IMG/VR virus record: IMGVR_UViG_3300009425_000044
Location: 1-36,339 of that record
Length of the DNA stretch: 36,339 nucleotides
From: a virus
Direction: 5' to 3' (one strand)
Made by a program: the position numbers and the translations under genes. The notes beneath the pieces were generated by a model. It was not told the origin of the DNA. It saw only the letters and a list, made by a program, of their open reading frames with translations, and did no database searches. Positions 1 to 35,130 of this stretch are shown here, one piece after another (position 1 is the first letter of the stretch; every line of letters begins with the position of its first letter).

Positions 1-3000
1 AAACTCAAAGCTGTCGCACCAGTCATCCCTGAATCTCCCCCCATGAAGAAGTTAGGCACTCCGCCTTCGGCTGCTCCAGTTCTCCTTAAAGTCGAGGGGG
101 ATTGACCAGCATTTAGATGCTGACTAATCGCATTACCCAAACTGCCTTGATTGCTACTGTAAACTCCGACTCCTACTCGGTTGTCGTATCCAATCATCGG
201 CTTCGCAGCAGACCCCGATTCCTTTATCCCCATCCTTTCCGCCGAAACTGCCCTCTCTAACGGGTTATTAAAGTTGGGAACAAATCCCCCGCTAAATCTA
301 CGCATCATCGCCAAACGCTGAAGAAGAATGTTCTTGGTCCCTGTACTCCCTGTAATTTTCGAAGGGTCTATCCCTTTTATCTGTTTTCTAAGTTCCGAAT
401 CCTTTACATCGCCAAACCACTCAGAGGAAGAACGACTAGGGTCTCTCAATGAAGCTAACTCTCGAACTTGAGATCCGAACATATCCCCTTTAAGCCCACC
501 TTGAGCTCTATAACGTAATGCTCCACCCGAATCTATTTGAACGACCTTGCCCTTCTTATCTACCATCATGTTGTCTTGAGACATACCAATCGCATCCCAG
601 TCAGCCATCAGCGCAATCTTCGCTGCACGACTTTGGATTTGCTTCATGATGTTATCTTTTTCTCCGGGTAAAGCAGACCTCATGTAAGTCCCCAGAGAAG
701 TCCCACCTTCCAAATATTTAGAGAGCATGAAAGATCTTCCCTGTGGCGTCTTGTTCAGCGAATGATCTGGAACTGGGACTCCTAAAGATCTGTATATTTT
801 ATTAGCTTCAAATTCATTTATGATGTGACCATTAGAAGCACCAAATTTACGGACAAGTTTTTCTCCAGACGGATCTAGCATTAACTCAGCACCAGTTGAT
901 CCTCCCAAATTGGCTAGTTTCTGCAAATTAAAGTTAGGCACGAATCCCGAAGAAAAATAGTCATCTTTCGGGATCGGGTAAGCCTTTTCTTGCGCCGAAT
1001 GGGTTTTAAAACTACCCGGTTTCCCAAACCCCTTTATTTCATTAGAAGGCCAATCTTTGTAGCCTAACTTCATAAGGCTGGTTTTAGCACTCCCCGTACC
1101 TGCTCCTTGCTTAAACATCGACGGCATTAGCAAGGAAATCTCTCTTTCGTGATCGAAACCATATCTCGCTCCGCTTCCTGTTGGTCCTGAGATACCAAAC
1201 TTTTGGGGATCGAAACCTAGCGGTCTTCCTTGAGCCATGTTATACAGAGAATTTAAAGAACCCTCTTTTTTATAGAGTGCTTCTATCTCTTTTTGCCCGA
1301 ATATGTCTTTGCCGGAAAGTCTAGTTTTAGCCATGTACCCATAACCCTTGTCAGGGCCATGTCTCATAGCGAACGTACTAGCAACGTGTTTATTCGTGGA
1401 CGCAGACATGAAAGGATCAAGACCAGAATTGTTAAAGCCACTCCCTAACATATCGCCACTTGACGAATTCCCTATGTGTTTCGAAAGAGCTTTTTTAAGC
1501 TGATCGGGGGTTGACGGCATTCCGATATTCGGTATCCTCCCTTGCCATATGCCCATCCTCCCAGATAATGCATCCTGAACAGTCCCCGCTCCTCCGCCAA
1601 GACCTTCAGGGAGCCTTTGCCTTGCTAGTGCTCTCCTTCCTTCGATACCTCTGTAAACTTCCGTCATACCGAAATTCGGAATATGACCTTTCCCTAGAGT
1701 TTTATTGAAGAACCTTTCTCCTGGCCAAGGGTTACCATTGCCGGTGAAACCGTGCCCATCGACTTGTCCTTTTCTGCTTAATCCCATCCATTTATAGTAG
1801 CTTCTAGCTTTTTCCCTAAAGCCCCCTTGACCGGGTTCGTTTTTTATCCTATCTATAACTGCACGACGTATTTCTTGCGATTTATTCTTCCTTCCTACGT
1901 CAAAATCACCCGTTAATTTTTTTATTCCTAATTTTTTCAGGATTTTTGCTCCTCTTGGTGTCATTAACGTCTTGATCACGGGCGGACCAACTATGGTGGG
2001 AGCGTGAAGAGTATGAAATTTCTCAATCTGGGATAGGTCAGCTCCAGTCCTCGCGAATTCGGCTCTCCGTTCCGAGTTTGTCATCTTACTTATCTGATCG
2101 ACTCTTGCGCTCCTCTGCTTTATCTGATTAATTAATCCCTTCAATCCTCCTACCCCCGACATGTATCCTATGTTTAGCTGTCCGCCATGATCACTAATGC
2201 CGCTTTGCCAACTTGAGCGATGGATGGTCCCCGGAAACTTCGTGGTCTCCGACGCGTTTGAAAAAGACGGAGGCTTCGGCGATGACCGTGGGGGTAGCGG
2301 TGGTCCAATGTCCCAGGGCATTCTCAAGGGCCTTCTCAAGGAGAAATTCGGAACATGACCTCCTGCTAGAGTCTTACTGAATTCCCTTCCTCCCGAATAT
2401 CCAGAGCCTAGATGTCCCCCGGTTTCGCTGAGCCACTTCGGATTAAGAGGCGTCGATCTCTCCGGTTTTTTTAATCCTAGCCATTTATAGTAGCTTTTAC
2501 TTTTTTTCAGAAAGCTCCCTTGACCGGGTTCATCTTTTATTCGTTGGACAAGTGCCTTGCGTATAGAAGGCATTTTGGTGTTAAAACTACCCGTTAAATT
2601 TTTTATCCCTAACCCTTTAAGGATATCCAGTCCTTTTGGTGTCATCAACGACTTGATCACTTTGTGGCCAACTATGTTGGGAGCATGAACAGTAGTATAA
2701 GCACCAGGCCCATTTCCATACTGAGCCGCGTTTTGCCTATTCCTTATCTTATTAATTAATCCCTTCATTCCCCCTACCCTTGACAGCCAGTCTATGGTTA
2801 GCGTTGAAGTGTCTCCCATTAGGTTCCTCGAAAGAAAATTACGCGGGGAAGCCTCCGAATGGGGACGGCGCAATTCATCTCGATGGCGGCGGAGATCGTT
2901 CGGCTTTTTCTGTCCGGGTAGCGGTGGTAGCGGTGGGTCCATTGGCGACGGTAGCGGTGGTCGTGGGTCTCCGCCAACCAAACGGTCGAACCTTCGCGGT

Positions 3001-5693
3001 GGTAGGAGGCCAAAATTCGGGATATGACCTTTCCCTAGAGTTTTTTCGAACATCCTGACGCCCCTGCTATGGCGGCCTTTCCGTTTTTTCATTCCCAGCC
3101 ATTTATAGTAGCTTTTAGTTTTTTGCAGGAAGCTCCCGTGACCGGGTTCGTTTTTTATTCTATCTACAATTGCGCGACGAAAATCACTGTAAGGCTCCTT
3201 CGCTGACTGACCAATGTCAAAATCACCCGTTAATTTTTTTATCCCTAACCTTTTAAGGACAGACGCTCCTCTTGGCGTTATTAACGACCTGATTACCTGC
3301 GGACCAACTATGGTGGGAGCGTTAAGAGTATGATAAGGCTGAATATGCGATAAGTCTGTTCCAGGAGGGAGTCGCATTTGTTCAGCCAAACGTTCCGAGC
3401 TTGACATCTTGCTTATCCTCTCAGCGTATGCCTTCCTATCTTTTATCTGAGTAGCTAATCCCTTCATTCCCCCTACACCTGACATGTAGCCTATGTCTAA
3501 CTCTCCCAATCGCAAGTCCCGACCGCCACTTGCCCGATCAACGTCAGAACTACTAGCCCAGTCTGAGCGTCTCCTTTGAGATGCGAACTTCGTGGGTGGC
3601 TTCGCGTTCGTCTGCGTTGACCAAAATGACGACGGACTCGCCGCCCCTGGTGATGATGGATGCGGCGGGACGAAACGACCTGATCTAAAGGCTCCCATCA
3701 TATTGAAATTCGGAACGAAGCCTTCGGCTCCCATCTGCTGACCCATCGCACGGCCAATCCTATCTGGTCGGCTACTTGAGTATGGGTCTATCCCTGTCTT
3801 AGAAATAGATTTGATCCTATGCTTTTTACCTGCCTTGCTATCCTTTGGCGGACTAATAAAAGGTTGCTTGAAGCCGCCTAAAAAATCAACTTTCTCTGCA
3901 TCGTTGTAGGTCACCTTACCTACCCCAGCCATACTAAAGCTCTTGACCTCGCCCGGACTGTAGCCTCCAGCATAAGCGTTTACCCTTTCTGCCGTCCTGT
4001 TCTGCGCGTTAGTTTCGGGTATGTGTCCAGACGCTCTCCCTCTCCCTCCTCCCATTTGGAAGCCTCCTGTTTTCGAGTTCTGTATCATCCCCCCTCTCAT
4101 TCCCATCGCGGCGACATTCATCCCGAGAAGAGAATTCTGCTGCATCGCCACGCCTTGGGCTCTTATAGAGGCTAAGATGTCTTTTTGAACCATAGCCATC
4201 GAACTCGTCCTTGAAAGAGATAGTTGGATTAACTGAGGATTTTGAGCCAACATTTCGTTGATCTGCTTTTGGAGCGTCCTCTGCTGTGTGGTTGCGTCAT
4301 TTATGCCTATGATTTGCCTTAGCGCGATTCCCGAAAACTTTATAGCACTACCCAATGTTTTCGCTATGGCTACCACCGCTATACCTAATCCGGGTCCAGA
4401 TATAGCCGCCCCTAACCCTTTGATAAGACCTTTCCCGATATTAGCCCCTAATCCTTCCGCCCCTTCTTTTGGGGTAAGAGCCTCCGATATCTTACCTCCT
4501 ATATTTAAAATATTCTTCAGGGCTGGGCCCACCAAGTCCTTACCTATTACTGCTCCAAATTCTTTGAACGACTCTGTAACTTTATTGACTAACGCTGATA
4601 TCGTAAGATTTAATTGAGCATTTCTCTGTAGCGCAGAATTATTATTCCTCAACGCTATCTCTTGCGCTTGATCAAAGAGATTGTACTCTTTCGACAAGTC
4701 GGAAATTGCTGCCATCAATTGGTTAACTTGATACAAGCCACCAGCCATGATCTTGACTTGCTGCTGTTGAGATTGGCCTAGGCCATCGTACGCCTTGGCT
4801 GTATTCTTCAATATTTGCAAACTATTAAGCCATAGTCCGTTTTGCTCTTTTACTTTAATGCCCATCGCAGCTAACTGCTCCATGGCCTTGGGCCTTTGGA
4901 TCTTGACAAAAATGGACTTAATTGCGTTACCAATAACAGGAGCGTTAAGAGCGGTCTTTTGTTTAATCACTGTTATCAACGCGCCAAGCTCCTCGAAAGA
5001 AACACCAGCAGTAGCAGCGGCAGAAGCTGATCTTTTCAGGGCCTCCGCCAAGTCCCCAGTGCTTACGGCAAAATTAGCATCCAAGTTAGCAAGTTTATTA
5101 ACGACCTGAGTAGAGGTGAGACCAGCGGCGGTAAAAGTATTCATCGCGGCAGTGAGAGCTTCAACTGCTGCTTTGGAATCTAAACCAGAAAGACGGACTA
5201 ATACCATCGCGTCCCTAACCCTTATCATAACCTGCTCGGTGGTGAGACCTTGCCGTGCTAACTCATTAGCAGAATCAGCTACAGTACCAAAAGCCTGACC
5301 CGTATCTTTGGCTATTGCGAATAATTTACTGCGAAAATCTGAAAGCTCCGATGTCGTCCCTTTTAAAAGAACATTGATTTGGGCTAGTCTTTTCTCTACA
5401 TCAATTGTACTCGAAACTAACTCCTTCATTGCCGAGCCAACAGCATATATAGCTCCAGCGGAAGCCCCGAAAGCAAAAACACGAGCATTGGCGGCAGCCA
5501 TTGACTTCCCAAACTGATCTGCTCCTTGAGTCATTGACCCAAGAGCCATCTTAGAAGCACCCGAATCGGAAGATGAAATAGGGTTAAATTTTGCCTTTTT
5601 CTCTATCCTGTTAAGAGAACTCTTAACATTCCTCTCTAGACCCCTAGTGTCTAGTCTTGCTCTAACGTCAATAGTTGCTACTGGTGCTGCCAT
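1..5693 (-). CDS. Tail tape measure protein with C-terminal enzyme-module array (partial, runs off window)
   Basis: This open frame starts at ATG 5693 and stays open to position 1, giving at least 1,897 residues with no stop. The N-terminal third (about residues 20-420) reads as a tape-measure core: alternating helices, Ala/Gln-rich, with an ELGALITVIKQKT-type stretch seen in TP901-like tape measure proteins. A hydrophobic Gly/Ala/Ile segment lies near residues 418-450. Beyond residue about 650 the protein becomes modular, and each module ends in G[FH][VI]PNF (residues 658, 889, 1112, 1336, 1583, 1803, and a shortened form near 1878). Modules 2-4 are related copies. The next carries an ADP-ribosyltransferase-like signature and the following one a kinase-like signature. 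Known role of the family: it sets tail length, fills the tube and is ejected at infection. Delivery of the extra domains into the host is my inference. The gene is last in the tail block, as expected. Confidence 0.88.
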   Translation of the reverse strand, partial: MAAPVATIDVRARLDTRGLERNVKSSLNRIEKKAKFNPISSSDSGASKMALGSMTQGADQFGKSMAAANARVFAFGASAGAIYAVGSAMKELVSSTIDVEKRLAQINVLLKGTTSELSDFRSKLFAIAKDTGQAFGTVADSANELARQGLTTEQVMIRVRDAMVLVRLSGLDSKAAVEALTAAMNTFTAAGLTSTQVVNKLANLDANFAVSTGDLAEALKRSASAAATAGVSFEELGALITVIKQKTALNAPVIGNAIKSIFVKIQRPKAMEQLAAMGIKVKEQNGLWLNSLQILKNTAKAYDGLGQSQQQQVKIMAGGLYQVNQLMAAISDLSKEYNLFDQAQEIALRNNNSALQRNAQLNLTISALVNKVTESFKEFGAVIGKDLVGPALKNILNIGGKISEALTPKEGAEGLGANIGKGLIKGLGAAISGPGLGIAVVAIAKTLGSAIKFSGIALRQIIGINDATTQQRTLQKQINEMLAQNPQLIQLSLSRTSSMAMVQKDILASIRAQGVAMQQNSLLGMNVAAMGMRGGMIQNSKTGGFQMGGGRGRASGHIPETNAQNRTAERVNAYAGGYSPGEVKSFSMAGVGKVTYNDAEKVDFLGGFKQPFISPPKDSKAGKKHRIKSISKTGIDPYSSSRPDRIGRAMGQQMGAEGFVPNFNMMGAFRSGRFVPPHPSSPGAASPSSFWSTQTNAKPPTKFASQRRRSDWASSSDVDRASGGRDLRLGELDIGYMSGVGGMKGLATQIKDRKAYAERISKMSSSERLAEQMRLPPGTDLSHIQPYHTLNAPTIVGPQVIRSLITPRGASVLKRLGIKKLTGDFDIGQSAKEPYSDFRRAIVDRIKNEPGHGSFLQKTKSYYKWLGMKKRKGRHSRGVRMFEKTLGKGHIPNFGLLPPRRFDRLVGGDPRPPLPSPMDPPLPPLPGQKKPNDLRRHRDELRRPHSEASPRNFLSRNLMGDTSTLTIDWLSRVGGMKGLINKIRNRQNAAQYGNGPGAYTTVHAPNIVGHKVIKSLMTPKGLDILKGLGIKNLTGSFNTKMPSIRKALVQRIKDEPGQGSFLKKSKSYYKWLGLKKPERSTPLNPKWLSETGGHLGSGYSGGREFSKTLAGGHVPNFSLRRPLRMPWDIGPPLPPRSSPKPPSFSNASETTKFPGTIHRSSWQSGISDHGGQLNIGYMSGVGGLKGLINQIKQRSARVDQISKMTNSERRAEFARTGADLSQIEKFHTLHAPTIVGPPVIKTLMTPRGAKILKKLGIKKLTGDFDVGRKNKSQEIRRAVIDRIKNEPGQGGFREKARSYYKWMGLSRKGQVDGHGFTGNGNPWPGERFFNKTLGKGHIPNFGMTEVYRGIEGRRALARQRLPEGLGGGAGTVQDALSGRMGIWQGRIPNIGMPSTPDQLKKALSKHIGNSSSGDMLGSGFNNSGLDPFMSASTNKHVASTFAMRHGPDKGYGYMAKTRLSGKDIFGQKEIEALYKKEGSLNSLYNMAQGRPLGFDPQKFGISGPTGSGARYGFDHEREISLLMPSMFKQGAGTGSAKTSLMKLGYKDWPSNEIKGFGKPGSFKTHSAQEKAYPIPKDDYFSSGFVPNFNLQKLANLGGSTGAELMLDPSGEKLVRKFGASNGHIINEFEANKIYRSLGVPVPDHSLNKTPQGRSFMLSKYLEGGTSLGTYMRSALPGEKDNIMKQIQSRAAKIALMADWDAIGMSQDNMMVDKKGKVVQIDSGGALRYRAQGGLKGDMFGSQVRELASLRDPSRSSSEWFGDVKDSELRKQIKGIDPSKITGSTGTKNILLQRLAMMRRFSGGFVPNFNNPLERAVSAERMGIKESGSAAKPMIGYDNRVGVGVYSSNQGSLGNAISQHLNAGQSPSTLRRTGAAEGGVPNFFMGGDSGMTGATALS
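384..929 (-). other. Kinase-like (HipA / PI-kinase-like fold) domain inside the tape measure protein
   Basis: Residues about 1589-1770 follow a GFVPNF motif and resemble an atypical kinase. A G-S-T-G turn precedes a Lys-bearing strand (LVRKF) and then a helix with Glu (NEFEANKIYRSLGV). A hinge-like LSKYLEG follows. The catalytic-loop-like M-A-D-W-D1700-A-I-G-M-S-Q-D1707-N1708 comes next, and a metal-binding-like Q-I-D1721-S-G-G-A-L-R-Y-R-A-Q-G comes last. The D...DN...ID-x-GG layout is shared by HipA, actin-fragmin-kinase-like and PI3/4-kinase-like enzymes. The spacing is compact, about 180 residues, so it would be a minimal member. Substrate is unknown, and protein or lipid phosphorylation are both possible. 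Calling it a kinase rests on motif order alone. Confidence 0.58.
1104..1667 (-). other. ADP-ribosyltransferase-like domain inside the tape measure protein
   Basis: Residues about 1343-1530 show the three landmarks of R-S-E class ADP-ribosyltransferases in the right order. These are Y-R1348-G just after a GHIPNF motif, then PF-M-S1430-A-S1432-T followed by an Ala/Phe helix (VASTFA), and finally H-E1516-R-E1518-I-S-L-L. Spacings of about 82 and 84 residues are compatible with the fold. In this family the Arg and Ser residues hold NAD and the second Glu of E-x-E is catalytic. The usual S-T-S is S-A-S here. A degenerate RIPNI copy of the linker motif lies inside the domain near position 1530. Target and activity are unknown. 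Phages such as T4 inject ADP-ribosyltransferases (Alt), which makes a takeover role plausible but unproven. Confidence 0.62.
1671..2180 (-). repeat. Tape measure module copy C
   Basis: Third related module. It has GYMSGVGGLKGLINQI, HTLHAPTIVGPPVIKTLMTP, LGIKKLTGDFDVG, DRIKNEPGQGGF, RSYYKWMGL and ends in KTLGKGHIPNF, immediately before the ADP-ribosyltransferase-like domain. It is closer to copy A than to copy B in the first half. Confidence 0.8.
2343..2803 (-). repeat. Tape measure module copy B
   Basis: Second related module. It has WLSRVGGMKGLINKI, TTVHAPNIVGHKVIKSLMTP, LGIKNLTGSF, RIKDEPGQGSF, KSYYKWLGLKK and ends in KTLAGGHVPNF. It lacks part of the segment following the first landmark that copies A and C have. 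A proline-rich linker precedes it (about 2890-3000). Confidence 0.8.
3012..3503 (-). repeat. Tape measure module copy A
   Basis: First of three related modules within the tape measure protein. Landmarks are IGYMSGVGGMKGL, then HTLNAPTIVGPQVI, LITPRGASVLKRLGIKKLTG, a helix RRAIVDRIKNEPGHGSF, KSYYKWLG and a terminal KTLGKGHIPNF. It shows no recognisable catalytic motif and is rich in basic and aromatic residues. Confidence 0.8.
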
Positions 5694-5729
5694 TATACCT
5701 TATCCCTTAGGTATTATTACACCTTTTTT
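5694..5729 (-). promoter_or_regulatory. Possible hairpin over the tape measure ribosome binding site
   Basis: On the minus strand ATACCT and AGGTAT form a six-base-pair stem around a loop that contains AAGGG. Both the loop and the 3' arm hold Shine-Dalgarno-like purines a few bases before the ATG at 5693. A weak translation-control structure is possible. The stem is short, so it may also be chance. Confidence 0.25.
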
Positions 5730-6794
5730 TTACTTTACGTTATGTATTTTCATTAGCTCATAAATGTCTAGTTTTCCGCCTTTCTTGGCTGCTTCTTTAG
5801 ATAAACTTATATATTCTCCTTGATCTTCCCCTAAACCAAGCCTCTCCAGATCCTCTTTCGTCGCCCCGACAAGGCTAGTAGCACCACCCGCTTTTTCTTT
5901 ACCCTCTAATGGGTCCTTCCCCTTGGCGTCTAGGCTCTCTATAACCTTCATCGCCTCTTCTCCCTGTTCAAAGAATTCTGTTAACTTGTCTGGATCATCA
6001 TACATCTCATCAGGCGGCTTGTTCTTAGAGTTTTGCAGCATATTCTTATAGTTCTTCCCAAAACTATAAAGTTGAACTTGATAGAACGTTAGATTGACGA
6101 TTGGCTTACCGAAAAAATAATAAGGGTTATCTTCAGATACATAAAAAAAGTTTAAAAAGAATCCAGAGAGAGCAATGCGTTTTAAAGTTTCTGATGAGAA
6201 CTTTGTATTGACGGCGTTATAGTTAGCGACTAAATCCGATAACTCCTTAGCGGATAAGTAGTCAAAGTCTTCGCAGCTAAAAAAAGGTTCTTTCAAGTCT
6301 CTGTCTTTATACAAAGATGAAAAAACATAGTACTCGTTTGTTTTCTTTTGAGCATACTTTTCCGAAGTAAACCCAATAAGCTCCTCTCTTTTAGCCAAAC
6401 TTTCAAAAAAAGTTTTGTTATTAGCCTCTATTTGAACCTCTATTTCGTTTTTTTGGTCTTGTATGAAAAGCTTTTTCTTACTTATTTCTAAGCTTTTAAT
6501 GAAGCCCTCAAGCTCCTTCATGTCCTCTTCGTCTTTAGAAGTCCAAAGTTCCTCCCCGTCTAAAAACTTTAGTTGATCCCCCTCTTTGACGAGACCCATC
6601 GTCTCTGATTTGTTCGTAGCCTCTGAATGCACCTCGTCTACTCTAGCGGAGTCCATAGACGTGAAGTGTTTTATGTAACAATCTTCTCCCTTGAAATAAT
6701 CAAACGCACTATATCCAAAAATTATATCGTTATATATAAACCTAAGCTTCTCCTTAGGAATCTCAAATTTTTTCTTTTTACTTTCGCTTTTCAT
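5730..6794 (-). CDS. Unknown tail-assembly protein, 354 aa
   Basis: I do not recognise a family. The protein is Lys/Glu-rich and mostly helical, with an aromatic patch near residues 210-250 (GFFLNFFYVSEDNPYYFFGKP) and a charged, probably flexible, C-terminal third. It lies between the tail tube and the tape measure gene, where siphophages encode tail assembly chaperones, so a chaperone or tail-associated role is the contextual guess. The ATG at 6794 directly abuts the T tract of a terminator-like hairpin. The 3' arm of that hairpin supplies AGGTGG, nine bases before the ATG, which could serve as the ribosome binding site. A later internal start cannot be excluded. Confidence 0.75.
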   Translation of the reverse strand: MKSESKKKKFEIPKEKLRFIYNDIIFGYSAFDYFKGEDCYIKHFTSMDSARVDEVHSEATNKSETMGLVKEGDQLKFLDGEELWTSKDEEDMKELEGFIKSLEISKKKLFIQDQKNEIEVQIEANNKTFFESLAKREELIGFTSEKYAQKKTNEYYVFSSLYKDRDLKEPFFSCEDFDYLSAKELSDLVANYNAVNTKFSSETLKRIALSGFFLNFFYVSEDNPYYFFGKPIVNLTFYQVQLYSFGKNYKNMLQNSKNKPPDEMYDDPDKLTEFFEQGEEAMKVIESLDAKGKDPLEGKEKAGGATSLVGATKEDLERLGLGEDQGEYISLSKEAAKKGGKLDIYELMKIHNVK

Positions 6795-6820
6795 AAAAAA
6801 ACCCCACCTAAGTGGGGTTT
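6795..6820 (-). terminator. Rho-independent terminator fused to the next start codon
   Basis: Minus-strand hairpin AAACCCCAC / GTGGGGTTT, nine perfect pairs with a four-base loop, followed by seven T and then ATG of the downstream gene. It lies 16 bases after the stop of the 348-residue gene. The stem core matches the terminator near 8190. Confidence 0.8.
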
Positions 6821-6836
6821 CATGGTCTAGTGCTTA

Positions 6837-7883
6837 TCAATTTTCGGTCCCTTTATCTTCGGGCTCTTCTGACTCTTCGGACTCTTCGGACTCTTCGGGT
6901 GGCATTTCATCCTTGGACTCTTCAGCTTCCTTTTCAGCTTCGACTTCCTTTTCGGCTTCGACTTCCTTTTCGGCTTCGACTTCCTTTTCGGCTTCGACTT
7001 CCTTTTCCATCTCTTCTGCCTTGGCTATGACATCCTTTTGGGCTTCTTCCATCTTCTCTTCCTCTTCTTTTATAAGATCACTAAAGGCTTCATCTATGTC
7101 TTCTTTTGGAATTCCGCCTCCAGCTTCCGAAGTGGAATCTTCCAGCATCTGCTCTGATTTGGATAGAGCCTCGAATTCTTCTTGAGTACTCGCTCTTCCA
7201 ACGTACCAATAACTTATGTAATAGGAATAAGTCCTTAAAACTTCGTCGATGTAATCGTTCCCTTCTTCTTCTAGGGCATCATAAACCGTTAGTTTTTCTT
7301 CCGAATTTCCATCCCCGAAAAAGGGAATCTCATCCCCAGCTTCTGAGGTTTCGTAGGACAAATTCAAAACCCACCACATAATCGTTTTCGTCCGCGCTCT
7401 GTTTTCGGCGGTTTGATCGAAAAAACTAGCTTGAGCAGTTTCGAAGTCCTGTATTTTAGCTCTACACCCGATCAACGCTCTTACGGCTGCGTTGTATTTC
7501 TCACGTTCTTCTTCCGTCTGCTCTGCTTTCGGGATTATCTGTAAGCGAGTAACCTCGTTTTGTAGCTCAAACATAGTGAAGTAAAGCCCAGAATATTGCT
7601 CTTGATCGGCCTCGCTTAACACTCCTCCATCGTTATCGAACCTTTTGGCTAACATTGCCCTCGTGAGCATCCCTGCCTTAATTCCTTCGGACAGCTTAAC
7701 GCCAAAATATAATTCAGCCTCGTCAAACATCACCCGCGTAGGTTTTTTAAGGAAAAAAGACCTTTCCTTATTCGTCTCTACGGTCTTCTTGACTGTGACC
7801 TCGTTACCGTCTGCATCTTTACTCTTTTCTTCTTCCTCTCTGAGAACAGGCTGAGTAAGTGTAAATTCGTATAATTTTTTCAT
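6837..7883 (-). CDS. Putative tail assembly chaperone-like protein, 348 aa, with acidic repeat tail
   Basis: The N-terminal 240 residues look folded (YEFTLTQPVLREE, SFFLKKPTRVMFDEAELYFGVKLSEGIKAGMLTRAML). The last 100 residues are almost only Glu, Lys, Ala, Val and Ser, built from tandem KEVEAE hexads followed by EES triplets. This predicts a long charged helix or disordered tail. The start ATG (7883) overlaps the stop of the upstream 78-residue gene by four bases (ATGA), indicating translational coupling. Position between tail tube and tape measure suggests a tail assembly chaperone or tape-measure partner. Length exceeds typical siphophage chaperones, and no frameshift signal was found at its end. 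The function is inferred from context. Confidence 0.72.
   Translation of the reverse strand: MKKLYEFTLTQPVLREEEEKSKDADGNEVTVKKTVETNKERSFFLKKPTRVMFDEAELYFGVKLSEGIKAGMLTRAMLAKRFDNDGGVLSEADQEQYSGLYFTMFELQNEVTRLQIIPKAEQTEEEREKYNAAVRALIGCRAKIQDFETAQASFFDQTAENRARTKTIMWWVLNLSYETSEAGDEIPFFGDGNSEEKLTVYDALEEEGNDYIDEVLRTYSYYISYWYVGRASTQEEFEALSKSEQMLEDSTSEAGGGIPKEDIDEAFSDLIKEEEEKMEEAQKDVIAKAEEMEKEVEAEKEVEAEKEVEAEKEVEAEKEAEESKDEMPPEESEESEESEEPEDKGTEN
6922..7008 (-). repeat. 18-bp tandem repeat encoding KEVEAE
   Basis: On the plus strand the unit cttcgacttccttttcgg recurs about four and a half times with almost no change. It encodes EVEAEK hexads on the minus strand. A separate nine-base repeat (gactcttcg type, encoding EES) lies at about 6862-6897. 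Near-identity at DNA level suggests recent slippage. Confidence 0.85.
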
Positions 7884-13021: not shown

Positions 13022-15256
13022 TTAGGTTTTAAACCAAACATCTCCGTTATCACCTCCACTAGGACTGCTAGAAGATACTGTTATATTAATACTTGGCCCA
13101 GTTGCGCCAGTAGGACCTGTTCCCCCAGCGGGTCCAGCGGGACCAGTAGATCCGCCACCACCAGCGGGTCCAGCAGCACCAGTCGCACCGGAAGGACCAG
13201 TTGAACCAGCAGGACCAGCAGGACCAGCAGGACCAGCAGGACCAGAGCCTCCTGAAGAACCAGCGGGTCCAGCAGCACCAGTCGCACCGGAAGGACCAGT
13301 CGAACCAGCGGGACCAGCGGGACCAGTAGGTCCAACTGCCCCAGTAGCACCAGAAGGTCCACTAGCACCTGAAGATCCAGTAGCACCAACATCACCGGAA
13401 GGTCCCTTTAGGTCGTCTACTGTTCTCCATCCTACCCGCCCTTCGTCAGCAGCAGATAAAGTTAATATTTGATTGCTGCTACCAGAAGCGGCTTCTAAAT
13501 AAACGGTTCCGCTTACCGCTAATCTTTCTGATTTTGCCGCGTGTGTGTACCCGACCATTAAGCTAGAGGAACTCGCTGCGCCTATTGAAACGTCACCATC
13601 CACGTCTAGTTGGAGCCACAATGCATCGCCATCGAAAGACTGAATGGTGTTCGGCCTACTGGCTCCCGTTCCTATGGCGAGATCCCCAGCCAATATGCCT
13701 CCAGAAGCATAAGGTATGTTAGGCACTTTTATAAATGAGCTACTAGGATTGCTTGTAGTACTATAAACGAGACTAGTCGCTCCTGCGAAAGCACCATTAT
13801 TATTATATTGAAATTCTCTATTGGAGCCCGAAGGAGTTCCTCCGCCTCCTGCTCCAGCAGGACCAGCGGGTCCAGTTGAACCAGCGGGTCCAGCGGGACC
13901 AGCGGAGCCTGTAGCTCCAGTAGGACCAGCCGAACCGGCGGAACCAGCGGGTCCAGCGGGTCCAGTAGGGCCAATAGCCCCTGTCGCCCCACTAGGTCCT
14001 GTGGGCCCATTTAAGTCATCTACCGTCCTCCACTTTACCCGACCTTCGTCTTCATCAGATAAAGTTAGTATTTGATTGTCGCTACCAGAAGCTGCATGTA
14101 AATAAACGTTTCCGCTTACTCCTAATCTTTCTGATTTCTGACCGGGTCTATAACCGATTTGTAAACTTGACGCGCTACGTTCTCCTACTGAAATGTCACC
14201 ATCCACGTCTAGTTGGAGCCACATTGGATCGCCATCGAAAGACTGAATGGTGTTCGGTCTACTGGCTCCCGTTCCTATAGCGAGTTCTCCAGCTAATATA
14301 CCTCCAGTAGCAAAAGGTAAGTCGGCTACTTTTATAAGTGCACTACTAGGATTAGAAGGAGTGCTGTAAACAAGACTAGACGCTCCTCCGAAATTGCCCA
14401 TATTGTTGTATTGAAATTCTCTATTAGAGCCTGAAGGAGTCCCCCCGCCTCCTGCTCCAGCGGGACCAGTGGGACCAGCGGGACCACTGGCTCCACCGGG
14501 ACCAGCGGGACCAAGGCCACCAGCGGGACCAGCGGGACCAGCGGAACCCGTAGCTCCAGAAGGACCAGTCGAACCAGCCGAACCAGCGGGTCCAGTCGAA
14601 CCAGCGGGTCCAGTCGAACCAGCGGAGCCTGTAGCTCCAGTAGGACCAGCCGAACCAGCGGGACCAGCCGAACCAGCGGGACCAGCGGGTCCAGTCGAAC
14701 CTCCAGCTCCCGGAATTCCTGAAGGTCCAGTAGGACCAGCCGAGCCATCCGAGCCATCGTTACCGGGGTTACCTTGGGGTCCTTGCGGACCAGCGGGACC
14801 AGCAGGTCCTCCATCTGGCCCAATAGCTCCTGAAGGGCCAACTGAACCAGAAGGACCAGTAGGTCCAGCAGGGCCAAGATTTCCTTGAGATCCTGTTGAC
14901 CCTGATGGTCCAATAGGGCCCACAGGACCAGTAGAACCCACAGGACCAGTAGAACCCACAGGACCAGCAGAGCCTATAGATCCAGTCGCCCCAGAAGGAC
15001 CAGTGGAACCTACTGATCCTTGAGGTCCCTGAATGCCTTGAACTCCTTGAGGCCCTTGAGACCCGGTAGGCCCAGTAGGACCAACAGGTCCTCCAGCGGG
15101 TCCTTGGGGTCCTTGGGGCCCTTGCGGACCAGCAGGACCAGAAGAACCAGCGGGACCCGAACTACCTGCGGGACCAGTAGACCCAGCAGGGCCGCTAGTC
15201 CCAGAGGGGCCTGAAGGTCCGACTTCCCCTACTTGTCTGTTAATCCAATTAGCCAT
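13022..15256 (-). CDS. Collagen-like fibre protein 1 (744 aa) with duplicated internal domain
   Basis: Gly-x-y repeats rich in GPT, GPS, GPA and GAT occupy residues about 10-265, 420-466 and 620-720. Between them lie two copies of a 150-residue beta-type domain (about 266-419 and 467-619; [55 protein letters not shown]). The C-terminus ends in [10 protein letters not shown], a motif common at the end of phage fibre proteins. Collagen-like phage proteins trimerise and form stalks. Proline is mostly in the x position. The protein precedes the connectors rather than following the tape measure gene, so it may decorate the head or neck. No transmembrane segment was seen. Confidence 0.88.
13400..14461 (-). 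repeat. Duplicated fibre domain in collagen-like protein 1
   Basis: Two copies of one domain lie at about 14000-14461 and 13400-13859, offset by about 602 bases with long near-identical DNA stretches. Both are followed by a new collagen block. This is a recent in-frame domain duplication. Confidence 0.85.
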
Positions 15257-15688: not shown

Positions 15689-17923
15689 TTAACCAAGAAT
15701 TATACTATATTTTATAATTTGTCTGGTCAGATCTGCACTATCTAAAGCTCCAGACACAGTCAAGGTCCCTCCAATTACAGCCGTGGTGGTGCTCACTGTG
15801 CCTCCCGACACCGTCAAAGAGCCTCCTACTGAAGTATTACCAAAAATTACAGAACTACCACTATTGACAATTCCACCTGAACCGAAATTAGTTGTTGTAT
15901 TTATACTCGCTGGAAATTGTATGCCCCCAGTGCCCAGAACGAGTAAAGTCGTCGAATCACCAGATTGCATTACATCATTTATAAGAGGCGTTCTTCTTAC
16001 TATGAAATTATTATCAACATTCCTTAATTCGACTACGTCTTCACCCACCATATAAATGCTATCGCCTTTAACAAATAAATCCTTCCAAGGTTTAACCACA
16101 GAGCCTATGTCGAAAATTCCGCTCTCCTTAGGCATAAGATCTCCACTAATATGTACTCCGCTATAAAGAGATATTGTGTTCCCGCTCTCGATGACTAACC
16201 CGCCAGAACTAATTACTATTCCGCTAGTTATCCCTGATGTTAGGGTTACTGATGGCCCAGAAGGACCGACGTTCCCCTGCTCTCCTTTATCTCCAGTTCT
16301 AGCAAAAGTTATTACTATATTCTCATCGTTATCAAGCGAACTAACACTTCCGTCTATATACGTACAGTTAACTTCAAAGTAGCCAACGTTCTCTGTTATC
16401 GAATTTACGACATAAATAACAAACTTATCGCTATCGTCTTCGTGAGATACTTTAAAGTGACCTTTTACCGTGCTGGTGGAATCGTCTATCGTTCTCAAAA
16501 AAGATTGTATATCGTTTGAGTATATATCTTTATCGTCTATATAGAGAGTAGTCGCTAATGCTAAATTAGAGTTATTAAATCTTAGATCCCCTGCTGCTCC
16601 ACCGGGAGACGGATCAGCATTCGTCGTGCTGGTATCGAACGTATACCGGAAAGAAGCTCCGCCAAAACTGCCCTGTGGGCCAGTCGGCCCAATAGATCCT
16701 GTGCTTCCTGTAGGACCGATGCTTCCTCCCGCGCCAACGGAACCTGCGGGACCCGTAATCCCAGTCGCTCCAGAAGGACCAGTCGGGCCAATCGGACCAA
16801 TAACACCGGAATGACCAGACGGCCCAATAGGACCCGTGACAGTAGAAGATGCCCCCACAAGTCCACTAGCACCAGAGGGTCCGGTTGAGCCAATAGACCC
16901 AGCGGGACCAGTAGGCCCAGCGGGACCAGCAGCCCCAACAGGGCCAACGGAACCTGTAACACCAGAAGGCCCAACGGGACCAGCAGGTCCGATAGGTCCA
17001 GCCACAGTTGAAGGCGAACCCGTAGCACCGGATGGGCCAGTTAACCCTCTCGGGCCAGTAGGCCCAATAACGCCAGTCGCACCGGAAGGTCCAGTAGATC
17101 CTAATGGCCCTATAGGACCTATAGGACCTGTAACACCTAATGGCCCCTGAATTCCTTGAGCTCCTTGAGGTCCTTGAGCTCCTACTCCACCAGCAAGACC
17201 GACAGGGCCTTGTACTCCACTAGGGCCAGTAGAACCTACGGGGCCAGTAGGCCCAATATCCCCATCGTCTCCTTTATCTCCTTCGGGACCAGCAGGGCCG
17301 AGAGGACCGATAGGACCGACAGTGCCTTGCGATCCTTGAGGACCTCTCGATCCAGCAGGGCCAGTGACACCAACGGAACCAGTGGGGCCAACGGACCCGA
17401 CATTTCCTTGAGATCCTTGAGGCCCAGTTGATCCGCTCGGACCGCTAGAACCAGCGGGTCCAGTGGGTCCAGTTACTCCTATAGCCCCAGATGGTCCAGC
17501 GGGACCAGCGACAGTAGACGCCGTACCTGTTGGGCCTACAGGGCCCGTTAAACCAGTGGCTCCAGATGGGCCAATAGAACCAGCGGGACCTACAGGACCC
17601 GTAGGCCCTATAGAGCCAATCCCCCCGCTAGGTCCAGTTGGTCCGGTGGGACCTAGACCCGTACCGCGAGGACCCGCAACTCCTGACGGCCCAGTAAGAC
17701 CGATGCCGCCTGAAGGTCCGATAGGACCAGTCGGGCCAAGCGGACCTTGAGGACCCTGCACGGGAATAGAAACAGTTGCTGTTTGAGAATCAGAAGGACC
17801 GATAACGGAAGAGGACGTAGTGGCGACTTGGGTAGTTATAGTCGCCGAATTAGAAGAGCTCGTACTGGTTACGCTCGATAACGCGCCAGTAGAGATCGTT
17901 GCGGTTATAACTTGGTCAGGCAT
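15689..17923 (-). CDS. Collagen-like fibre protein 2 (744 aa)
   Basis: An N-terminal Ser/Thr-rich head (residues 1-55) is followed by Gly-x-y repeats over about 57-418. A globular domain follows (about 420-545; [35 protein letters not shown]), then a short second collagen stretch. The C-terminus is beta-solenoid-like, built from Gly/Ser/Thr turns with GG at regular intervals ([10 protein letters not shown] near the end). Its length equals collagen-like protein 1 exactly, although the non-collagen domains differ. Likely a trimeric virion fibre. The start overlaps the upstream stop (TGATG). Alternative names such as tail fibre or head fibre cannot be separated here. Confidence 0.86.
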
Positions 17924-27310: not shown

Positions 27311-29134
27311 TTAAATCATTATAGGACGGAAAGTATTTGTTTTCACCTCTAAATTCATCGACGTAATGTCAAAATATACCTTCGCTGCCCAGTTCGCCAT
27401 GAGTAATGTCGTATAGTTATCTCTCCTCGCTCTGTTCGGTGAAGTATTTCGCTTTAAGTGCTGTGGCAAATCAAAGGTTTGGTTTCCCTTAGCAGTGCTT
27501 TTCACTTCTATCAAAGCGCATTGCTTCTTCACTTGGTATATAAGATCATCCTGAGTTTCAATCAACTCTAAAATATTATCCTCACCGACTAGGTCCATAT
27601 TTATCCTAAGTTTGCTTTGCGAGTCAAAAGCCTTATTGTCAGCCGTTGATTTCGACGCAAACCAAATTCTCTTGTGATCTATAGCCGCCTGTAAAAGCTC
27701 ATTAGACTTCCTTAGCCAACTACTATTAAACACTTGCTTGTAACAAATCGTGTGGTTTTCTTTATTAAATACAGCTTTCGCTTTTTTAATTTCTTTTATG
27801 TAATCCAATCCTTCTTTATCCGTATTGATATCGAAGAAGTTTAATACGTTGTCTCTAAAAAGTTCCGACTCATTACACCCATCTATGAATTGAAAACCAG
27901 CGTTATCTATGCATATCATTTCTATGTTAAAGTTTTCGACTACATAGCTAAAGTATTTTATGTGATCTTTTAGATCTCCTCCTGCTACAGCGTAATTGTG
28001 TACTACTGTAGTCTGTTTAGACTCCATATCTAACTCAAGAATGCACATAGCAAAGTAGTCAGAGCTTGGGCTGTTTGAAAAAGAAGGATCAATGGCGACT
28101 AAATATTTCTGATTAGATTTGCCTCTTATTAGGGTATGAGGACTTTCTCCGTCAGGGATAGTACATTCGTGCATCTTTCTCCCACTGAAGTAAGAATCAC
28201 TCCCATCCGTGAATTGAGCGCAATACTCTCTTTGAAAAGACGAGTGGCTTTGTCCGCCGTTTTGAGCTTCTTCGATTATTGTAGAATCGATCATATGATC
28301 TGGAAGAGATTCCCAGCCTAGTTGAGATATAAAATATGTCGCATCTCTGATCACGGAATCATCATATATATTCTGCATCCATTCTTTGTAAGTTTTATAC
28401 AAATTCTCAAAAGTATAAGAAGCTGATGAAAGAGCTATCATCTTTGAGTTGTTCTGGAACTTCATCCTGTCTTCTTCTTTCATTAGCCCTTTCTCTATAA
28501 GGCCGTTCTCCATTTCCCTGATTTCGATACGCTCCTTCATGTCTTGAGGGGCAACCAAAAACGGCATGAGCACGGTTTTGATTGTATCCTCAGGAAGCAA
28601 CAGAAACTCGTCGAGGACTAAAACGTTAGCTCTAAATCCGCGAATCTTTTCTCCACTCAAAGGGATCGCTGTTATGGAGCCTCCGTTTATTTGCCACTCA
28701 AAGGCGTCGTTCCGTTTTGCCTTCGCTCCGAATGCTTGTTGGAGTAAAGAAGCTCCCTTTGTGTCCACTAACTTTTCTAGATTGTTGAAGATAAATCTCG
28801 CGGTACGGAAAGTGGGACCCGCAATAAGAATCTTTGTCTTCGGCTCAAAGATGCATTGCAAGAAGCAAAAGACCGAGGCTATAAACGTCTTACCGCAACC
28901 GCGCCCCCAGACGCACATAGAGAAGTTCCGGTTCATCATTCCCTTTAAGGTGATCTCCTGAAACTCAGCTAATTTAATTCCAGATATTAACTCGGTAGTA
29001 AAGCCGAGATTACCTCGCAGAAATTTAGCCAAAGACACCTTCGCGGCTGTGTCATCTAACTCCCCCTTTAGGCTGAGTATTTCTTTGTTAACGTCCGGTA
29101 ATGGGCGATTATATTTTTCTGGGCAATACCACAT
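27311..29134 (-). CDS. Terminase large subunit
   Basis: A 607-residue packaging motor with both domains. The ATPase has Walker A GRGCGKT (residues 77-83), an AGPTFRTARFIF coupling segment, and Walker B VLVLDE (171-176) followed by a SSASYT motif near 236. The RNase H-like nuclease shows VAID349PS, MICID410NAG and an acidic residue in ARRDNYTTLLMANW near the C-terminus. The stop of the upstream nuclease gene overlaps its ATG (TAATG at 29134). Terminase type (cos or pac) cannot be judged from sequence here. Confidence 0.95.
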   Translation of the reverse strand: MWYCPEKYNRPLPDVNKEILSLKGELDDTAAKVSLAKFLRGNLGFTTELISGIKLAEFQEITLKGMMNRNFSMCVWGRGCGKTFIASVFCFLQCIFEPKTKILIAGPTFRTARFIFNNLEKLVDTKGASLLQQAFGAKAKRNDAFEWQINGGSITAIPLSGEKIRGFRANVLVLDEFLLLPEDTIKTVLMPFLVAPQDMKERIEIREMENGLIEKGLMKEEDRMKFQNNSKMIALSSASYTFENLYKTYKEWMQNIYDDSVIRDATYFISQLGWESLPDHMIDSTIIEEAQNGGQSHSSFQREYCAQFTDGSDSYFSGRKMHECTIPDGESPHTLIRGKSNQKYLVAIDPSFSNSPSSDYFAMCILELDMESKQTTVVHNYAVAGGDLKDHIKYFSYVVENFNIEMICIDNAGFQFIDGCNESELFRDNVLNFFDINTDKEGLDYIKEIKKAKAVFNKENHTICYKQVFNSSWLRKSNELLQAAIDHKRIWFASKSTADNKAFDSQSKLRINMDLVGEDNILELIETQDDLIYQVKKQCALIEVKSTAKGNQTFDLPQHLKRNTSPNRARRDNYTTLLMANWAAKVYFDITSMNLEVKTNTFRPIMI

Positions 29135-30096
29135 TATAAATTGGATATATCGTACATGTATTGAAGGTCTATCTGAGAATAATAATCAGGATTAGCGAAT
29201 ACTTTTTGAGCCACCCTAGACGACTCCTCTCTTCCATCAACGAATAAAAATTGTATATGACTAAATTCCTGACACAAGTCTCTCATTTGTTTTAGAATAT
29301 AGCCGGGGTTCATTTTCGTATCTTTATGGATTCTCTCTTTTGATCTCACTTCTCTCTGCTTTTTAAAGCTCATCGCATTAGAGAAAACAGACTCCACTAA
29401 AACTACTAAAAATGCCTGAGAGTCAGCAGCCTTCATGATCTCGTTTCTAAACCTATTAAAGTGCTTTGGACTTAGCGTCCCCACAAAGTCAGCCAAGGAT
29501 TTTCTTTCTATGTATAACAGACACTTTTCATAAGCATTACTAGCGCAGTAATCCCCAAATTTTAGAGTCCTTACTTCTGTGTCCTTGGACCCAAATTCGA
29601 GGGGCAACTGTTCTCTCGTGTCTATATATATCGTGAAATCATTGTCCTCTGCTGGTCTCTCTACGTCTAAGTAATATTTAAATTTATTTATGAGGCCGAC
29701 ACTGGAACAAAAGTCATAATAGCCATCGAAAAGTTTTTCACATTCCGAAACCGTAGGCCACATCAAGCTTCTAAGCTCTACCTCGCTTAGCGAAAACCTG
29801 ACTTTACCATCTTTAACCCTATCGTTAAAAAGCTTAGAGCAGAACTTCCTTACTTCATTAATGTCCGTAATCTTTCTCCAAGTCTTGAAGTTAGTTGCTG
29901 ATACAAAATGCTTTTTCTTGTAACTCTCTTTGTTCGTAAACTCTATTTTCTCGCCAGTAAGAAGATCTTTTTTCGGAAAAAATTTCTCGTAATACTCCTT
30001 AGTCTTAATGCTATGAGCCTTTAAATGAAAATGTAGAGACTTGTCAGAATCAAATCTCTTACTACAGATCATACATTTATGTTTTCTGCTATCCAT
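29134..30096 (-). CDS. C2H2 zinc finger plus ERCC4-type nuclease, 320 aa
   Basis: Residues 8-28 form a C-x2-C-x12-H-x3-H zinc finger (C8, C11, H24, H28). The C-terminal half (about 153-300) shows the ERCC4/XPF nuclease core: IYID159TRE162QLP, LKFGD182Y, YIE197RK199S and D203 in LADFVG. ERCC4 nucleases cut branched or flapped DNA using this D...GD-x-n-ERK-x3-D set. The gene directly precedes and overlaps the terminase gene, suggesting a job in genome-end processing, resolving branches before packaging, or host DNA attack. The zinc finger is probably a DNA-binding module. The middle part is unassigned. Confidence 0.85.
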   Translation of the reverse strand: MDSRKHKCMICSKRFDSDKSLHFHLKAHSIKTKEYYEKFFPKKDLLTGEKIEFTNKESYKKKHFVSATNFKTWRKITDINEVRKFCSKLFNDRVKDGKVRFSLSEVELRSLMWPTVSECEKLFDGYYDFCSSVGLINKFKYYLDVERPAEDNDFTIYIDTREQLPLEFGSKDTEVRTLKFGDYCASNAYEKCLLYIERKSLADFVGTLSPKHFNRFRNEIMKAADSQAFLVVLVESVFSNAMSFKKQREVRSKERIHKDTKMNPGYILKQMRDLCQEFSHIQFLFVDGREESSRVAQKVFANPDYYSQIDLQYMYDISNL

Positions 30097-34365: not shown

Positions 34366-35130
34366 TTAAACCTTCTTCAGTGCCTTTACGATGTATTTTA
34401 CTAAAGCAGATCTCATTACATCGTCCTCATTGAACTCAAAAGTTTCTATACCCTGTTCTCTAGCCTCCTCATTAGAGAATGCCGTTTCTATCCTGTCAAA
34501 TCCCCCCTGAAGCTCTTTTCTGTGAAGATCGGTCTGTGCAGGGTCCGCCAAAACAAAGCACCTAGAGCCTTCTCCGAGCCTAGTCAAGACCGTAGTGATC
34601 TCTTTCATTGAACTGTTCTGTGCTTCGTCCAAAATAATGCATTTTGACTTCCAACTCATACCTCTAGCAAAGTTAACAGGGTACATTGAGATGCGTCCCT
34701 CTCTCTCTAATCTCTCAGCAGTAGCGTCAGTGACCAGTTCGTCCAATTTGTCAAGGAAAGGCAGATTATAAAACCTGAGTTTGTCCTCCGCTGAACCCGG
34801 TAAGAAACCCAACTTGCTTTCTGAGCTCTCAACAGCCGACCTTAGGTACATAATGTCTGAGATCTTCTTCTCATTTAAGAGTCTCAACCCGCAATAGACC
34901 GATAAGAGTGACTTGCTTGTACCAGCAGGTCCTTTAACGAGCATAATCTTAGTGTTTTCCGCCAAAGCGATCTTAAAAAAGTCTCTTTGTTTGGCTGTCC
35001 AAGGAAATTGCTTTAGCTTTAAAGATCTTCTTATAGGATTCGGATTAGCAGAATCTATTGCATCGATGATCTCGGTGGCTACATCCTGTTTGAGTTTAGT
35101 CCTTGAAGGGCTCCCGCGCTTTTTGCTCAT
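34366..35130 (-). CDS. phoH: PhoH-like ATPase
   Basis: A 254-residue protein with Walker A GPAGTSKS (residues 67-74), a PhoH-type YLRSAVESSESKLGFLPGS segment, Walker B IILDEAQN (165-172) and VLADPAQTD as sensor-like motif. These are PhoH family signatures. PhoH-like proteins are ATPases linked in some hosts to phosphate stress, and many marine phages carry them; their role in phages is unclear. No strong ribosome binding site precedes the ATG. The upstream gene ends 17 bases before the ATG. Confidence 0.9.
   Translation of the reverse strand: MSKKRGSPSRTKLKQDVATEIIDAIDSANPNPIRRSLKLKQFPWTAKQRDFFKIALAENTKIMLVKGPAGTSKSLLSVYCGLRLLNEKKISDIMYLRSAVESSESKLGFLPGSAEDKLRFYNLPFLDKLDELVTDATAERLEREGRISMYPVNFARGMSWKSKCIILDEAQNSSMKEITTVLTRLGEGSRCFVLADPAQTDLHRKELQGGFDRIETAFSNEEAREQGIETFEFNEDDVMRSALVKYIVKALKKV

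What the first reader, a model, noticed from the sequence alone, without database searches (positions are those of the whole stretch)
48..3722. Regular G[FH][VI]PNF boundary motif in the ruler protein
Six full copies, plus one shortened and one degenerate copy, mark module ends every 220-250 residues, across modules that are otherwise unrelated. Codon use differs, so selection appears to act on the peptide. It could be a processing site, a docking motif, or a fold-separating clasp needed for unfolding and refolding through the tail.
Basis: seen in the sequence. Interest (0 to 1): 0.75.

Follow-up and report, generated by a model that had tools for sequence, protein, structure and literature searches.

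The report
Junction peptide between phage cargo cassettes
A short peptide, roughly G-F-V-P-N-F, marks the exact ends of interchangeable enzyme-like cassettes built into the tail ruler protein of uncultured phages, which suggests that the ruler also carries a swappable set of proteins into the host cell.

Summary
The motif is real and non-random. The window's tape measure protein (residues 1-1897, C-terminus lost at the contig edge) has six G[FH][VI]PNF copies (6 against 6e-4 expected), a GVPNF copy, and a degenerate GHIPET at the first boundary. Of 80 related tape measure proteins found by their N-domain, 78 carry the strict motif; of the other two, one is cut short and one uses PNY. Layout: N-domain, motif, alpha module (~80 aa), motif, cargo modules, motif, omega module (~75 aa), motif, C-part. 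Synonymous codons vary as in background, so the peptide is what is conserved. Between close relatives cargo is swapped outright, and homology breaks at the motif. AlphaFold puts the motif in unstructured linkers between folded modules. Cargo includes a kinase-fold module (closest H. pylori CtkA), an ADP-ribosyltransferase-like module, GNAT, SNase and HATPase domains. The kinase module also occurs fused to a phage minor capsid protein. Best reading: a tape measure protein doubling as carrier of exchangeable, probably injected effectors, separated by a linear recognition peptide, most likely a cleavage site, possibly a docking site. No partner protease was found. Not located in the papers searched; no cultured relative found.

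The parts
4029..5693 (-). Tape measure N-domain, residues 1-555
   Evidence: Pfam PhageMin_Tail 1.8e-25; phrog_4211 tail length tape measure 1.3e-42; 30-41% identical to most members of the family alignment
4011..4028 (-). Degenerate first junction GHIPET, residues 556-561
   Evidence: Falls in the boundary-1 motif columns of a regex-free alignment
3723..4010 (-). Alpha module, residues 562-657
   Evidence: Same position and similar sequence as the ~80 aa module at the start of relatives' arrays
3705..3722 (-). Junction GFVPNF, residues 658-663
3030..3704 (-). Cargo module m1 (triplicated family, fold unknown)
   Evidence: 42-54% identical to m2 and m3; no clear Pfam match; no relative in the motif ORFs fetched by then
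3012..3029 (-). Junction GHIPNF, residues 889-894
2361..3011 (-). Cargo module m2
   Evidence: alignment A1
2343..2360 (-). Junction GHVPNF, residues 1112-1117
1689..2342 (-). Cargo module m3
   Evidence: alignment A1
1671..1688 (-). Junction GHIPNF, residues 1336-1341
948..1670 (-). Cargo module m4, ADP-ribosyltransferase-like by motif (R, S-x-S, E)
   Evidence: Similar to a cassette in L085 (E 2e-10, two-sequence BLAST); R7 G8 S89 S91 E177 invariant in 4 cassettes; Pfam PF03496 does not match the window
930..947 (-). Junction GFVPNF, residues 1583-1588
288..929 (-). Cargo module m5, protein-kinase fold
   Evidence: AlphaFold pLDDT mostly 80-93 over the N-lobe; VIA-align best 3akk_B CtkA Z 13.9, rmsd 3.9, 211 aligned; Foldseek best E 1.5e-5, kinases
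270..287 (-). Junction GFVPNF, residues 1803-1808
63..269 (-). Omega module, residues 1809-1877
   Evidence: HMM matches to omega modules of relatives, best 1.1e-13; 75 aa spacing as in relatives
48..62 (-). Shortened last junction GVPNF, residues 1878-1882
   Evidence: relatives have a full motif at this boundary
5730..6794 (-). Gene just upstream (P0002), relatives conserved in 74 of 80 loci; possible tail assembly chaperone by position only
6837..7883 (-). Second gene upstream (P0003), relatives conserved in 75 of 80 loci; same inference

Best explanation
The protein is a phage tail tape measure protein with an array of exchangeable cargo cassettes built in between its N-domain and its C-part. 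The peptide A-[AS]-x-G-[FYHL]-[VI]-P-N-F-[AS] is the junction between cassettes, sitting in a flexible linker at every cassette end. Shown by computation: array layout, peptide-level conservation, cassette exchange with breakpoints at the motif, linker location in AlphaFold models, restriction to the tape measure protein in 25 records, kinase fold of module 5. Inferred: the cargo are effectors that leave the tail with the tape measure and act in the infected cell. Inferred with less certainty: the junction is a recognition site cut by a protease, phage, host or self, so each cassette is freed after ejection. My odds: cassette carrier 0.9; injected effectors 0.7; cleavage 0.45; docking 0.3.
For: 80 tape measure proteins found by N-domain homology: 78 have the strict motif. 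Regex-free boundary columns: G 80 of 80, P 79 of 79 at boundary 1; G 76 of 77, P 78 of 79, N 77 of 79 at boundary 2. Conservation falls to background outside about -3 to +6. Codon usage as background. Of 64 pairs with N-domain identity of 80% or more and canonical layout, 35 have unrelated cargo, and identity falls from high to 0-20% within two residues after the motif, rising again at the next motif. m5 matches L082 from motif to motif at 53%. All four motif copies of a canonical relative lie in pLDDT<50 linkers. 96 of 96 whole-record hits in 25 records lie in the tape measure ORF, reversed control 0. Cargo: kinase fold, R-S-E triad, GNAT, SNase, HATPase. The m5 kinase also sits in a protein with Phage_min_cap2 (L378, 1.8e-12) and one with ADPrib_exo_Tox (L381, 3.2e-10). 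Spacing follows cassettes, from 15 to 1022 aa, as expected of a boundary site rather than a ruler mark.
Against: No protease partner: Peptidase_S78 0 of 25 and S49 0 of 25 records, ClpP 3 of 25, S77 search uninformative; no peptidase in 34 C-parts or in the cargo sets by Pfam. Most cargo has no recognisable family: 5 Pfam families in 123 representatives, 11 in 50 at E 0.01. The dominant cargo's FE-D-DxK signature could not be confirmed by fold search. Delivery into the cell is not shown. m1-m3 have no known function.
Confidence: 0.6

Rival explanations
1. Docking site: the motif binds a phage partner, such as the two proteins encoded just upstream, which keep each cassette unfolded and threaded during tail assembly. 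No cutting takes place.
For: The two upstream genes are conserved in 74 and 75 of 80 loci and stand where tail assembly chaperones usually stand (position recalled, no family match). No protease was found. The motif occurs only in the tape measure protein.
Against: Motif positions follow cassette ends, not even spacing (15 to 1022 aa), and cargo of 570-820 aa has no strict internal copy. Four distant tape measure proteins of cultured or gut phages lack the motif.
Confidence: 0.3
2. Unfolding hinge: a flexible stop that lets each domain unfold and refold separately while passing the tube; sequence conserved for this physical role.
For: Located in linkers of low predicted confidence; separates folded units.
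Against: Near-invariant G, P and N over distant proteins is more than a flexible hinge needs; flanking linkers are not conserved.
Confidence: 0.15
3. Recombination mark: the motif is kept because its DNA promotes cassette exchange.
For: Exchange breakpoints coincide with it.
Against: Synonymous codons vary as in background over 555 copies, so there is no conserved DNA word; alpha and omega modules already offer longer homology for exchange.
Confidence: 0.04
4. The modules are structural spacers or host-range determinants of the tape measure, not effectors.
For: Most modules have no family match. Tape measure proteins of some phages are known to interact with host membrane proteins (recalled).
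Against: Kinase fold with conserved catalytic-type residues, R-S-E triad, GNAT, SNase, HATPase; no membrane-like segment in any array of 63 complete proteins.
Confidence: 0.2

Closest known systems
Polyvalent proteins of phages and conjugative elements (Iyer et al. 2017, PMC5512222; passages read)
   Same: One polypeptide joins many conflict enzymes (ART, kinase, GNAT, ParB-like) thought to be delivered with the DNA; the authors infer separation during deployment by embedded peptidases.
   Different: Those passages do not mention tape measure proteins or a PNF motif (0 occurrences of 'tape', 'linker' or 'PNF'). Here the vehicle is the tape measure protein, a fixed peptide marks all joins, and no embedded peptidase was detected by Pfam.
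MuF polymorphic toxins of temperate phages (PMC5576092; passages read)
   Same: Variable toxin domains on a constant virion protein, proposed to be injected; the m5 kinase is found in L378 with a minor capsid domain.
   Different: The constant part is a capsid protein, with one C-terminal toxin; here several internal cassettes lie between constant modules of a tail protein. 0 occurrences of 'tape', 'linker' or 'motif' in that paper.
Sle1 and Tme tape-measure-related effectors of contractile injection systems (PMC13277306; abstract and passages read)
   Same: A tape-measure-related protein carries an exchangeable functional domain out of a tail-like tube.
   Different: Bacterial injection systems, one C-terminal functional domain, DUF4157 partner; no junction peptide mentioned (0 'PNF', 0 'cleav').
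H. pylori CtkA kinase (PDB 3akk, 3akl)
   Same: Best structural match of module 5: Z 13.9, 211 aligned, rmsd 3.9.
   Different: 14% identity; free-standing bacterial protein.

Membership tests
Phage tail tape measure protein | Homology to tape measure N-domain | tested here: met
   PhageMin_Tail 1.8e-25, phrog_4211 1.3e-42; N-segments of 27 of 37 scanned match phrog_4211
Phage tail tape measure protein | C-part of tape measure type | tested here: met
   For relatives only: 16 of 34 C-parts match phrog_3547; the window's own C-part is beyond the contig end
Phage tail tape measure protein | Sets tail length | not testable with these tools
   Needs mutants and microscopy
Polyvalent proteins | Several conflict-type enzyme domains in one chain | tested here: met
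   Window: kinase fold and R-S-E module; relatives: GNAT, SNase, HATPase
Polyvalent proteins | Embedded peptidase domain (common, not universal) | tested here: inconclusive
   None by Pfam among 123 and 50 cargo representatives and 34 C-parts, but most cargo is unassigned
Polyvalent proteins | Delivered into the cell with the DNA | not testable with these tools
   Needs infection proteomics
MuF polymorphic toxins | MuF domain | tested here: not met
   No MuF or minor capsid match in P0001 or its modules
R-S-E ADP-ribosyltransferases (module m4) | R, S-T/x-S and E catalytic triad | tested here: met
   Invariant R7, S89, S91, E177 in four cassettes
R-S-E ADP-ribosyltransferases (module m4) | Profile or fold match | tested here: inconclusive
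   PF03496 no match; AlphaFold of m4 had pLDDT mostly under 50; profile A12 against PDB best E 0.02 to an uncharacterised protein
Protein kinase-like fold (module m5) | Kinase fold | tested here: met
   VIA-align Z 13.9 to CtkA; Foldseek E 1.5e-5
PD-(D/E)XK nuclease (commonest cargo of relatives) | E, D, D-x-K signature | tested here: met
   FE-D-DxK pattern in 36 of 42 canonical cargos; in A8 E259, D303 and K305 invariant, 28 rows already chosen by this pattern
PD-(D/E)XK nuclease (commonest cargo of relatives) | Fold | tested here: inconclusive
   No Foldseek match at E 0.001 or less; VIA best Z 2.8

The most novel reading that the evidence does not exclude
A widespread lineage of uncultured phages uses its tape measure protein as a polyprotein magazine: a variable set of injected effectors, each bounded by one universal cleavage peptide, passes through the tail ahead of or with the DNA and is cut into separate enzymes in the host, and phages re-arm by swapping cassettes at that peptide.
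Probability: 0.4. Interest if true: 0.92.

Novelty: new variant of a known kind. Interest (0 to 1): 0.8.

Why it matters
It gives a search key: one peptide pattern locates the borders of hundreds of otherwise unrecognisable phage cargo domains, most without any Pfam match, so candidate host-takeover and counter-defence enzymes can be cut out and tested one by one. It would make the tape measure protein, usually seen as ruler and pore, a protein delivery vehicle, and would make the question of what phages inject besides DNA directly testable by looking for PNF-ended fragments.

Tried and rejected
Led nowhere: the search for related loci with the whole P0001 and with the m1-m3 alignment gave no relative. 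GHIPNFG pattern gave 13 stretches; in the five motif ORFs of 200 aa or more from them that one search lists the motif stood alone, likely chance. Genome-contig scan gave 6 stretches, of which one lake MAG contig (L183) has four copies. Literature scan for the motif letters gave 14 papers, unrelated by title. Microcystis phage MaeS, whose terminase matched at 22%, has no motif. Tube protein and P0003 had no match in 50,697 phage records. Foldseek and VIA of the canonical relative: no meaningful match; absence from that list excludes nothing. A first ART regex found nothing, a relaxed one found two, so that pattern was fitted after the fact; the L085 match is the independent support.

Rejected: DNA-level element; motif as buried clasp; evenly spaced ruler mark; GRIPNI as a real copy.

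Cautions: pair counts are not independent, since the same proteins recur. In one search the letters G, P, N and F are fixed by the regex; only searches are regex-free. The 80 N-domain relatives are the best 80 of at least 521 and were found with peptides from motif-bearing relatives. One search scanned 123 of 177 segments of 85 aa or more (dereplicated); one search scanned 36 of 72 N-segments plus the window (dereplicated); one search scanned 34 of 71 dereplicated C-parts, longest first, because of the residue cap; 42 of 80 had canonical layout, 36 with signature, 28 kept after dereplication for AlphaFold. Stop-to-stop frames were used as ORFs. The terms alpha, omega, junction and cassette are mine.

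Full report
What is there. The finding lies in a minus-strand ORF, window 3-5693, 1897 aa, open at its 3' end because the virus record ends there. Its N-terminal part is a tape measure domain: PhageMin_Tail 1.8e-25, phrog_4211 1.3e-42. The motif G[FH][VI]PNF stands at residues 658, 889, 1112, 1336, 1583 and 1803, and GVPNF at 1878. Shuffling gives 6.1e-4 expected copies.

The motif is widespread and belongs to one protein family. Of 120 frames with GFVPNFA, 86 hold two or more G[FYHWLM][VILT]PNF copies, up to eight. Of 58 control frames none holds a second permuted motif and none a real one. To avoid choosing by motif I searched by the N-domain: at least 521 relatives exist and the best 80 were kept. 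Of these 80, 78 carry at least one strict motif and 76 at least two. L360 is cut off before the array, and L364 carries nine GFVPNY or GHVPNY copies. Aligning the boundary regions without any regex gives G in 80 of 80 and P in 79 of 79 letters at boundary 1, and G 76 of 77, P 78 of 79 and N 77 of 79 at boundary 2; the window reads GHIPET at boundary 1. Four distant tape measure proteins (SPbeta YomI, Lactococcus AM4, Bacillus FADO, a gut phage) have no copy. In 25 whole virus records all 96 pattern hits lie in the tape measure ORF on its strand, with no hit for the reversed pattern.

Architecture. Segments before the first motif match tape measure families in most cases (phrog_4211 in 27 of 37), and segments after the last match other tape measure families (phrog_3547 in 16 of 34). 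The array is therefore an insert between the N-domain and a C-part of roughly 800-2600 aa in complete proteins. The usual order is N-domain of about 540 aa, motif, alpha of about 80 aa, motif, cargo, motif, omega of about 73 aa, motif, C-part. In 63 complete proteins no membrane-like segment lies in the array, while 51 have one in the N-domain and 41 in the C-part. The window follows this plan with five cargo modules and loses its C-part at the contig edge.

The peptide, not the DNA, is conserved. Over 555 motif copies synonymous codon use is close to that of the same residues elsewhere in the same ORFs. Conservation spans about ten residues, A-[AS]-x-G-[FYHL]-[VI]-P-N-F-[AS], and falls to background on both sides. 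In 183 copies not chosen by the search pattern, A follows in 127 and A or S precedes at -2 in 154.

Cassettes are exchanged at the motif. Of 64 canonical pairs with N-domains at least 80% identical, 35 have cargo without detectable similarity; the pairs overlap in their members. In these 35, identity is high through alpha and the motif, 40% at the next residue and 0-20% after it. On the right it is mostly under 30% until about five residues before the motif, then high through motif and omega. Examples: L315 and L319, N-domain 95%, alpha 86%, cargo none, omega 92%; L331 and L332, one cargo 97% identical and the next unrelated. The window's m5 is 53% identical to a cassette of L082 from motif to motif. 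Pooled, 378 distinct cargo segments form 129 similarity clusters, 77 of them single.

What the cargo is. Module m5 has a kinase fold: AlphaFold is confident there, Foldseek finds kinases from 1.5e-5, and VIA-align ranks H. pylori CtkA first, Z 13.9, rmsd 3.9, 211 aligned. Relatives of m5 sit in phage proteins with a minor capsid domain (L378-L380; Phage_min_cap2 1.8e-12 in L378) and with an ADP-ribosyltransferase domain (L381, 3.2e-10). Module m4 shares R-G, S-x-S and E with three other cassettes and matches one in L085 at 2e-10. This is the triad of R-S-E ADP-ribosyltransferases (triad recalled), but no Pfam profile confirms it. Relatives carry GNAT, SNase and HATPase domains. The commonest single cargo has an E, D, D-x-K pattern in 36 of 42, suggestive of a nuclease, but no fold match supports it. 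Most cargo has no Pfam match.

Where the peptide sits. In the model of a canonical relative (28-row alignment) the four motif copies fall in the segments with pLDDT under 50 (1-25, 92-100, 328-347, 414-437; one motif residue, 348, just outside), while alpha, omega and the core of the cargo are mostly at 70-87. In the model of the window's own residues 1326-1897, the copies at 1336, 1803 and 1878 lie in segments under 50, and four of six residues of the copy at 1583 do; module m4 in that model is itself under 50, so only the copies around m5 are informative. The most conserved columns are thus in linkers, as for a linear recognition site.

How it most likely works. The tape measure protein lines the tail tube and leaves it on infection (general knowledge of tailed phages). 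A set of effectors spliced into it would be delivered with it. Each must then act as a free enzyme, and a fixed peptide at every join, in a flexible linker, regardless of cassette length (15 to 1022 aa between copies), is what a polyprotein cleavage site would look like. I put cleavage at 0.45. Docking to a partner is next at 0.3: two upstream genes are conserved in 74 and 75 of 80 loci and no protease partner was found (S78 0 of 25, S49 0 of 25, ClpP 3 of 25; S77 search uninformative).

Comparison. Polyvalent proteins (PMC5512222), MuF toxins (PMC5576092) and the tape-measure-related Sle1 effector (PMC13277306) are the nearest ideas; I read an abstract and found passages, not whole texts. None of the passages describes motif-bounded cassettes in a phage tape measure protein. 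One paper on protein shuffling in phages (PMC10684548, passages) reports mosaic signal in tape measure proteins by sequence but could not confirm recent cases; the exchange at fixed borders seen here would be such a case. Searches for print: in an open-access library only, so absence elsewhere is not shown.

Verdict. Motif and boundary role: firm. Cassette carrier: strong. Injected effectors: likely. Cleavage: plausible, untested.

Noticed in passing
L378-L380 (ORF from about 4621), L381 (ORF 4963-7536): The kinase module of the window also occurs in a phage protein with a minor capsid domain and in one with an ADP-ribosyltransferase domain, so the same effector travels on different virion proteins.
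   Followed up: partly
window 1689-3704: Module tripled in tandem (m1-m3), no relative found; weak DUF6824 similarity (2.6e-5 for the whole protein, below the curated cut-off).
   Followed up: partly
window 13022-15256 and 15689-17923: Two 744-aa collagen-repeat tail fibre-like proteins of equal length.
   Followed up: no
window 27311-29134, 29134-30096, 34366-35130: Terminase large subunit, ERCC4-type nuclease and PhoH-like gene.
   Followed up: no
window 6837-7883: P0003 ends in a strongly acidic repeat (KEVEAE units).
   Followed up: no
L015, L080, L074, L347: Pairs of motif copies only 10-16 aa apart, as if a site were doubled.
   Followed up: no
L364: A relative in which nine copies all end in Y (GFVPNY, GHVPNY) instead of F; a natural test for co-evolution with a partner.
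   Followed up: no
L183: A 3.5 kb contig of a lake MAG carries four motif copies, possibly a phage binned with a host.
   Followed up: no
C-parts in alignment A4: Consensus GGxVxGGxGxxDxVPAMLxxGEYV, present twice in variant form.
   Followed up: no
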